DNA from: Sphingomonadales bacterium
Lineage (GTDB): Bacteria; Pseudomonadota; Alphaproteobacteria; Sphingomonadales; Sphingomonadaceae
DNA: 64,000 nucleotides
Reading direction: 5' to 3'
NCBI GenBank assembly: GCA_028868535.1
Contig: JAGWUH010000009.1
Coordinates: 1-64,000 of the forward strand
Shown here: piece by piece, positions 57,874 through 59,925 of the stretch
Layout of the letters: the number at the start of each line of letters is the position of its first letter
Numbering within the stretch: the stretch's first letter is position 1
Translations under genes and position numbers: made by a program
The notes under the pieces: generated by a model
What the model was told of the DNA's origin: nothing
Databases searched by the model: none
Seen by the model: only the letters and a program-made list of their open reading frames with translations

Positions 57874-58230
57874 GTCCATGCATGTTTCTCAGACGATTGA
57901 ATGCGGTGGGCCGGGGTCGCGACGTTGTTGGCTGAAACGCCGTGATATTTTGGGGGACAAATTTATTTCTGGTTGGAGACACGCGATGGTGGACAAGGGG
58001 CAATGACTTTCGATTGCATGATTTTTTCGGAGCTGCGCCGAGGGAGTGGCGATGCCCGAATCGGTGCGGGGACGGTGGACCCGCCCGGTCCGCGTGGAGC
58101 GAATCGGCTGGCGGCGGGCGCGGCGCGGCGGGGGTGGACGAGCCGCCTGGCGGCGACTTCGGCGGCGGGGTCGGTCGGGGGCTGGAGGGGGTGAAAGGTT
58201 ACCGCCGGGGTGCGTCCGGCGGCGGCGGGG

Positions 58231-58265
58231 TTGACACGGGTTGACAGGGTTCAGGGGGCGGATTG
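58231..58265. repeat. 34-35 bp dispersed repeat copy 2 (ttgacacgggttgacagggttcagggggcggattg)
   Basis: Near-identical to 46571-46604; contains the stop codon of the adjacent minus-strand CDS. Confidence 0.85.
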
Positions 58266-58856
58266 CGGGGCGCCGGCGAGGAGGCCGTCGACGGTGGCGT
58301 GAGCGGCGGCCTGCCACGCGTCCCACTCCGCCCGGGCGCGCTCCGCCTGGCGGCGATCGCGGGTGACGTGGATGGCGCGCGGCTCCGGCAGATGCGGCGA
58401 AGCGCTGCCGGAAAGCTCGCGGGCGGCGTTTTCCTCGGCGATGGAATCGAAGAACATCGGGATGGCCGGGACGGCGCCGCCGAGGAGGGCGAGAAGCTCG
58501 TCGAAGCGGGCGGCGTGGTGGACGGCGAGCGGGGCATCGGCGCGCTCGTCGAGGCGGGCGAGATGGGCGAGGAGCAGGCGGGAATCGTGGCGGAGGCGGG
58601 TGCCGACCTGCTCGCCGCGGTGGAAGACGGCCTCCTCGACGCCGTTGAGCGCGCGATCGGCGAGCTCTGCCTCGGCAACCTCACGCGAGAGCACGAGCGC
58701 GCCATCCCAGGCGGCGGCGAAGGCGGGGAGGCGGCGGCGGAGCCGATAGGCGGTTTCGGCAGAGACGCCGGTGCGGGCGCAGGTGAGGCGGACATTGCCG
58801 GTGGCGGCGAGCGCCTCGCAGAACAGGACCTGGCGGGCGGGGGTGAATTCGGACAT
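58251..58856 (-). CDS. Helix-turn-helix protein, terminase small-subunit-like
   Basis: FTPARQVLFCEALAATGNVRLTCARTGVSAETAYRLRRRLPAFAAAWDGAL. Confidence 0.6.
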   Translation of the reverse strand: MSEFTPARQVLFCEALAATGNVRLTCARTGVSAETAYRLRRRLPAFAAAWDGALVLSREVAEAELADRALNGVEEAVFHRGEQVGTRLRHDSRLLLAHLARLDERADAPLAVHHAARFDELLALLGGAVPAIPMFFDSIAEENAARELSGSASPHLPEPRAIHVTRDRRQAERARAEWDAWQAAAHATVDGLLAGAPQSAP

Positions 58857-58962
58857 GGGGCGCGACTCCGTTTTGGTGAAATGTATCGCACCTATGTACC
58901 ATATTGGAACTTTGTAGGAAAGCTTTTCCTTTCACGCCGATGCAGGCGAGCGCGACCAGCCC

Positions 58963-59044
58963 GCAAATATCGATTGTCGATATTTGCCACTGTCAGACTC
59001 CGTGAGTTCAACGTCGCCGCGCCCAGCGGCGACACCGCTTGGAG
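58963..59044 (+). repeat. Two-hairpin structured element, copy A
   Basis: GCAAATATCG-attgt-CGATATTTGC, 12 nt, ccgtgagttcaac, GTCGCCGC-gccca-GCGGCGAC. Confidence 0.8.
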
Positions 59045-59115
59045 CGCGGGTGTGGCGCGAGGCAGGCCGGCATGATACCGTATCGCCGCGAATATAGATT
59101 AGCACGGAGGCGAAG

Positions 59116-59610
59116 ATGCGGTGGGCGATGGTGCTGGCGGCGATGACGGCGACGCCGGCGGGAGCGCAGGAGGCCCCTGCCCCGGCGTGCACGGCGACGG
59201 TGAAGGCGGAGGGGGCGCTGGCGGCCTGGGGCGTGGAGACGGCGATGACAGCGAACGGGGCGGCGACACTGAAGGTGGGCCAGGCGGCGCGGCTGACGCT
59301 GGCGCCGGTGGCGGCGGTTCACTGGGCGGCGGCTCCGGCGAAGGCCCCGGCGGCGGGGACGTTCGGCGGGGTGGTGAACGTGTATGTCGCGAAGGCGGGG
59401 ACCTATCGCGTGGCGCTGGGCGCGGGGGCCTGGCTGGACGTGATCAGGACGGGGGAGACGGCGGCGACGCCATCAACGGCGCACGCGCATGGGCCGGCGT
59501 GCACGGGGGTACGCAAGCTGGTGGACTTCACGTTGGTGACGGGGCGGTATGCCGTGCAGGTTTCCGGCGCGCCCGAGGCGACGATCGGGATGTTGGTGGT
59601 GGCGGGGTGA
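59116..59610 (+). CDS. Hypothetical exported protein
   Basis: Signal peptide MRWAMVLAAMTATPAGAQEA; flanked by the two structured elements. Confidence 0.65.
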   Translation: MRWAMVLAAMTATPAGAQEAPAPACTATVKAEGALAAWGVETAMTANGAATLKVGQAARLTLAPVAAVHWAAAPAKAPAAGTFGGVVNVYVAKAGTYRVALGAGAWLDVIRTGETAATPSTAHAHGPACTGVRKLVDFTLVTGRYAVQVSGAPEATIGMLVVAG

Positions 59611-59611
59611 C

Positions 59612-59692
59612 GTCCAGATCGCTTGTCGATCTGGACCATCATTGGCTTCCGTGAGTTCAACGTCGTTGCGACCAGCGGCGACACTGCTGGAA
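59612..59692 (+). repeat. Two-hairpin structured element, copy B
   Basis: GTCCAGATCG-cttgt-CGATCTGGAC, 12 nt, ccgtgagttcaac, GTCGTTGC-gacca-GCGGCGAC. Confidence 0.8.
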
Positions 59693-59925
59693 GTTTGAGG
59701 GTGGAGAAAAGAATGCGCTGGCTTCTGGCAGTGCGCCAACTTGCAGCCTCCCTCACCCCCATCCAACTCCGGCCAGGCGCTGCACGACGAAGCCTTCGTA
59801 TCCTTCCTCCATCGATGAGGAAGCTTTGCTTCAGCCCAAACCGTAACCGAGCCTGCGGCTCGAAGCCACCCATCCCCTCCCCAAGCGGATCATCGCATTC
59901 CGCACCATGCGGGGGAATACGCCCC

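What the first reader, a model, noticed from the sequence alone, without database searches (positions are those of the whole stretch)
58963..59692. Two co-oriented two-hairpin elements flank one gene: covarying stem I, constant loop and spacing, conserved core
Seen: copy A 58963-59044, copy B 59612-59692. Stem I differs almost completely but stays perfectly paired (GCAAATATCG/CGATATTTGC versus GTCCAGATCG/CGATCTGGAC) around the same loop (A/C)TTGT and closing ATCG/CGAT. A linker of different sequence but exactly 12 nt follows in both. The core CCGTGAGTTCAACGTCG..GCG.CCAGCGGCGACAC is conserved and forms hairpin II; CC in A becomes TT in B opposite GG, which preserves pairing only as G-U wobble on the + strand RNA. 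Inference: a mobile or regulatory RNA-level element (REP/MITE-like or riboregulator) bracketing the exported-protein gene 59116-59610.
Basis: partly seen in the sequence, partly recalled or inferred. Interest (0 to 1): 0.82.

Follow-up and report, generated by a model that had tools for sequence, protein, structure and literature searches.

The report
Two-hairpin repeats behind bacterial genes
The two elements belong to a family of about 25 short mobile repeats scattered through this sphingomonad-type (probably Novosphingobium) genome; each folds into two hairpins, most sit at the stop codon of a gene in the same direction, and the outer hairpin arms change wholesale between copies while staying paired, which makes them a distinctive new variant of the known REP-type repeats.

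Summary
A covariance model built from own-genome copies finds about 25 copies in the 3.39-Mb draft genome, one in MAG SZAS-34, and almost none in 195 other genomes of the genus. Both hairpins keep pairing through two-sided changes (11 of 18 pairs; 59 cells against 17.6 in shuffles). Stem I arms differ at up to 10 of 12 positions between copies whose 36-nt core and hairpin II differ at 1, so arms turn over as a block. Seventeen of 21 copies lie at -36 to +40 nt from the stop codon of an upstream gene, all in sense; some supply the C-terminus and stop. Copy B fits this and copy A does not, so "bracketing one gene" is incidental. I read it as a mobile REP-like repeat selected as a 3'-UTR RNA hairpin. 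It lacks a RAYT (none in the draft) and a GTAG/CGTC tag. At one locus two copies flank a 603-nt segment holding an unannotated, promoter-bearing structured-RNA candidate conserved in the genus; at least 7 such left junctions exist. Family and structure are shown; mobility, transcription and function are inferred.

The parts
58963..58987 (+). Copy A, stem I (10 bp, loop ATTGT)
58988..59012 (+). Copy A, 12-nt linker (ends AGACT) and core CCGTGAGTTCAAC
59013..59033 (+). Copy A, hairpin II (8 bp, loop GCCCA)
59034..59068 (+). Copy A, less conserved 3' part of the element; right boundary approximate
   Evidence: shared with other copies
59116..59610 (+). Gene with a signal-peptide-like N-terminus by eye; homologues on plasmids of Sphingomonas, Novosphingobium and Methylobacterium relatives (some annotated homogentisate 1,2-dioxygenase); host gene of copy B
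   Evidence: weak codon score
59612..59636 (+). Copy B, stem I (10 bp, loop CTTGT), 1 nt after the TGA stop codon
59637..59661 (+). Copy B, 12-nt linker and core CCGTGAGTTCAAC
59662..59682 (+). Copy B, hairpin II (8 bp with two U-G pairs, loop GACCA)

Best explanation
A mobile, non-coding repeat of about 115 nt (stem I, linker, core, hairpin II, 3' part) that has spread in this lineage and is retained mainly directly at stop codons, in the sense direction. There it would be transcribed as the first part of the mRNA 3' tail, and its two hairpins would act as RNA elements: a block to 3' exonucleases, or a processing or termination site for the upstream gene. Shown: family, structure conservation, position and orientation. 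Inferred: mobility (dispersal, near absence from relatives, altered gene ends) and the RNA-level role. The mobilising enzyme is unknown.
For: 25 copies in one genome, only traces in 195 other genomes of the genus, one full copy in MAG SZAS-34. Two-sided changes in 8 of 10 stem I pairs and 3 of 8 hairpin II pairs; 94.7% of cells paired against at most 56.5% when slid. Seventeen of 21 copies lie at -36 to +40 nt from the stop codon of a co-oriented gene; all 17 are sense (2^-17 under random orientation). Comparison with orthologues shows replaced gene ends: adenosine kinase has lost its usual ..LVAARLG end and stops inside the stem I loop (L130), and the XRE-type regulator P0002 gains GSLVDPDPHQTP from the element. 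Known REPs of sphingomonads also sit within 20 bp of ORF 3' ends (PMC3733652).
Against: No T-run follows either hairpin; the only terminator-like site in the region lies elsewhere. G-U and A-C cells are about equally frequent, so selection on RNA rather than DNA hairpins is not proven. Four copies, A among them, have no co-oriented gene just upstream. Relatedness of copies inflates covariation counts. Gene calls rest on a home-made codon model, which missed gene 59116 and the PPIase gene upstream of L133.
Confidence: 0.55

Rival explanations
1. Purely selfish DNA element: the hairpins are needed as single-stranded or cruciform DNA for transposition by an unidentified enzyme, and the sense position behind genes is only where insertions do least harm or where the enzyme acts.
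For: Pairing conserved without strand preference; clusters within 2 kb, 7 pairs against 0.35 expected; composite copies that carry other DNA.
Against: Selection against harm alone does not explain why all 17 copies at gene ends are sense. No Y1 transposase in the draft genome, though it is only 82.8% complete.
Confidence: 0.28
2. Stem I pairing is kept by mutation rather than selection: template switching at quasi-palindromes, or snap-back copying, rewrites one arm from the other, so the covariation says nothing about function.
For: Arms change as a block, up to 10 of 12 positions, between copies with 1 core difference; ten different triplets next to a nearly constant ATCG-loop-CGAT.
Against: Hairpin II also covaries, at single separate pairs. 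Recurrent arm types (GCAAAT in 7 copies) suggest inherited lineages plus recombination in the linker. In adenosine kinase orthologues the gene end does not clearly contain the 5' arm (not conclusive).
Confidence: 0.12
3. Recombination-site cassettes like integron attC: each gene plus its 3' element is a mobile cassette.
For: Element at gene 3' ends, sense, structure conserved more than sequence; runs of gene-element-gene-element at contig C32.
Against: Hosts are scattered, many of them housekeeping-type genes in ordinary contexts; hairpin II is preceded by AAC but not followed by GTTRRRY. No integrase search was made.
Confidence: 0.03

Closest known systems
CGTC-tagged REPs of alphaproteobacteria (Di Nocera et al. 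2013, PMC3733652)
   Same: Short palindromic repeats, 5-nt loop, tail often CCA, subfamilies with complementary stem changes, lying close behind ORFs and sometimes inside ORF ends; no dedicated transposase known
   Different: No conserved CGTC tag, no AT at the first two stem positions, two unlike hairpins in fixed order instead of head-to-head dimers, longer unit with a conserved core. Typical CGTC REPs (CGTCATCCCCGCGAAAGCGGGGACC) exist separately in this genome
YPAL/RU-2 and ERIC/RU-1 of enterobacteria (PMC2229807)
   Same: 100-170-nt mobile repeats with RNA hairpins, transcribed with neighbouring genes, sometimes fused in frame
   Different: No sequence comparison made; those have TIRs and/or target duplications, which were not seen here; hosts are gammaproteobacteria
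RIME, Rhizobium-specific intergenic mosaic elements (existence per PMC2573895; two-palindrome anatomy from memory)
   Same: Intergenic alphaproteobacterial repeat; two large palindromes (from memory)
   Different: Sequences not compared here; hypervariable stem I and position at stop codons are not known to me for RIME
RPE of Rickettsia (PMC3733652, PMC2229807)
   Same: Palindromic repeats that add encoded residues to proteins
   Different: RPEs lie within genes; here only C-terminal ends are supplied, with the stop codon in or before the core

Membership tests
CGTC REP superfamily | Unpaired CGTC (or TGTC/CCTC) tag before the stem | tested here: not met
   Only a minority of copies have CGTC at the foot of stem I (B, L119, L115 2204), and there GTC is paired; GCA, GGA and others elsewhere
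CGTC REP superfamily | Stem 8-9 bp starting with AT, loop 4-5 nt, CCA tail | tested here: not met
   Loop of 5 and CC(A) tail fit, but the stem does not begin with AT and is 7-10 bp
GTAG REP / RAYT system | GTAG foot and a Y1 (RAYT) transposase in the genome | tested here: not met
   No conserved GTAG; PF01797 has no match in G000 while it does in some other genus members; draft is 82.8% complete
MITE | Terminal inverted repeats and target-site duplication | tested here: inconclusive
   None seen by inspection of flanks or against orthologous gene ends without the element; exact 3' boundary uncertain
Intrinsic terminator | GC-rich hairpin followed by a T run | tested here: not met
Rfam families | Match to a covariance model | tested here: not met
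   No match up to E=5 for 58850-59800
Integron attC | RYYYAAC ... GTTRRRY on either side of the stem | tested here: not met
   No GTTRRRY after hairpin II; integrase not searched

The most novel reading that the evidence does not exclude
The two-hairpin element is the terminal direct repeat of a larger LTR-like mobile unit that carries a roughly 450-nt, promoter-bearing structured RNA gene. Solo copies arise by recombination between the two ends, and stem I arms are rewritten at mobilisation, giving each lineage its own palindromic address around a constant loop.
Probability: 0.15. Interest if true: 0.8.

Novelty: new variant of a known kind. Interest (0 to 1): 0.48.

Why it matters
If right, it is a natural experiment in which many gene 3' ends acquired the same RNA structure, so its effect on mRNA ends and stability can be read directly from RNA-seq. 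The block-wise turnover of a palindrome around a fixed loop bears on how such repeats spread, which is open for alphaproteobacterial REPs that lack a known transposase. The RNA-like cargo may be an undescribed ncRNA family.

Tried and rejected
Rfam: no family. Viral contigs and phages: no copies; plasmids: one short partial match in Embleya only, taken as chance. The 78 viral hits to the 15-mer are unrelated by model R1. Three family-wide hits near E=0.005 and L152 judged to be chance. The first codon model picked antisense frames and was discarded (replaced by 46). HTH gene beside copy A as a multi-copy mobiliser: single copy in G000, not supported. G-U asymmetry as proof of + strand RNA: rejected. 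Host-derived 5' arm: not supported at adenosine kinase. The IS66-type genes beside the copy in MAG SZAS-34 look like an insertion into the element's tail, not a partner (inference).

Full report
Check of the observation. Both copies are at the stated places. Stem I of A and B differ at most outer positions yet all ten pairs hold; the linker is 12 nt; the core is identical; hairpin II has two U-G pairs in B. Folding beats dinucleotide shuffles on the + strand (z -5.3 and -3.1); on the minus strand A still folds well and B does not.

Copies elsewhere. The 17-nt core has 17 hits with up to 2 mismatches in the own genome, against none for the reversed control pattern. Model R1, built from 14 copies, gives 25 matches at E<0.01 in the own genome. 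In 60 relatives there are none. In the genus (196 genomes) three others show one match each: L150 is a distant relative with stem GTCAAAGCCG-CTTGG-CGGCTTTGAC, L151 has stem I and linker next to a tRNA-like 3' end, L152 looks like chance. Large searches score only the best candidates per genome, so weak copies can be missed. A pattern scan of 85,488 species finds one further copy, in MAG SZAS-34. The genus is probably Novosphingobium: the interior segment described below, as found in two genus members, has its only plasmid matches in N. resinovorum; this is an inference.

Structure. On 22 distinct copies 94.7% of the paired cells are standard pairs; 11 of 18 pairs show changes on both sides; the covariation score is 0.409 against 0.154 in shuffles, and sliding the partner destroys it. 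Hairpin II changes at single pairs (C-G to U-A, C-G to G-C, G-C to A-U); stem I changes in blocks. Stem I arm positions differ by 51% on average between copies, the inner four pairs by 5%, the core by 20%, the hairpin II stem by 12.5%; copies with one difference in 36 core and hairpin II positions differ at up to 10 of 12 arm positions. Gradual compensatory change cannot easily do this. Exchange of modules between lineages by recombination in the linker is my preferred reason, rewriting of palindromes the more novel one. Eight copies have GGA, GAA, CAA or AGA opposite GAC at the foot instead of full pairing; GGA opposite GAC would be a tandem G-A pair (inference).

Position. Using a codon model trained on window genes, stop positions, flanks and a manual reading of L133, 17 of the 21 copies that are not the right end of a composite have the stop codon of a co-oriented gene at -36 to +40 nt of stem I. 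Examples: B (TGA, 1 nt before stem I); L119, L121 and L127 (stop just before it); L126 and L131 (stop inside the 5' arm); L130 (stop in the loop); L112 2442, L115 2204, L122 and L148 (stop in the core, protein ends ..TP or ..AP). Exceptions: A, L112 1501, L116, L132. Orthologues without the element show that the gene ends were altered in G000. Seven pairs of copies lie within 2 kb, 0.35 expected. Gene 59116-59610 is real by homology although its codon score is low.

Composite units. At contig C51 two copies in direct repeat flank 603 nt. The left junction recurs in L119, L122 (diverged), L127, L129, L131 and L133, all near contig ends; the right junction in L114, L124 and L125. So there are at least seven left junctions and four right ones, and these repeats break the assembly. 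The interior has relatives without this element in eight other genomes of the genus: a segment of about 450 nt with a conserved TTGACA...TATAGGTTAT promoter-like end, a long closing helix (GGGTCGGCGTC with GACGCCGACCC; in G000 AGGTCGGCGTT with AACGCCGGCCT) and no Rfam match. Which strand is transcribed is inferred from the promoter-like end only.

Interpretation. The family is a REP-like mobile repeat. It matches the known habit of sphingomonad REPs to lie close behind ORFs (PMC3733652), but fails the CGTC and GTAG tag tests and has a fixed two-hairpin order. RNA-level function is the best reading of strict sense orientation at gene ends; it is not demonstrated. Mobility is inferred from dispersal, lineage restriction and altered gene ends; no strain-level empty site was available.

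Noticed in passing
L115:1601-2203 (contig C51); relatives L217-L224, L226, L228, L259, L260: About 450-nt conserved structured segment with a TTGACA-type promoter-like end on the reverse strand, absent from Rfam, several copies per genome in some Novosphingobium; candidate new ncRNA.
   Followed up: partly
window 58227-58935; L111, L112, L116, L118, L130, L132: Motif GTTGACAC..GTTGACA.GGTTCAG lies at the end of the HTH gene 58251-58856 (minus strand, weak Sf6 terminase-small-subunit-like match) and near its homologues L230-L233; the same motif, about 150-190 nt before TGTAGGAAAG, directly follows six two-hairpin copies, like an HTH-less remnant.
   Followed up: partly
L114, L124, L125: Canonical CGTC REPs CGTCATCCCCGCGAAAGCGGGGACC close to the right ends of the composites.
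   Followed up: no
L151:1480-1624: Stem I and linker sit between two copies of a tRNA-like 3' end (GGTTCGAGCCCTAGTGCGTCCACCA on the reverse strand) at a contig end; ARAGORN calls no tRNA.
   Followed up: no
L150:1501-1600: Distant relative of the element in genome G176 (48 bits) with stem GTCAAAGCCG/CGGCTTTGAC.
   Followed up: no
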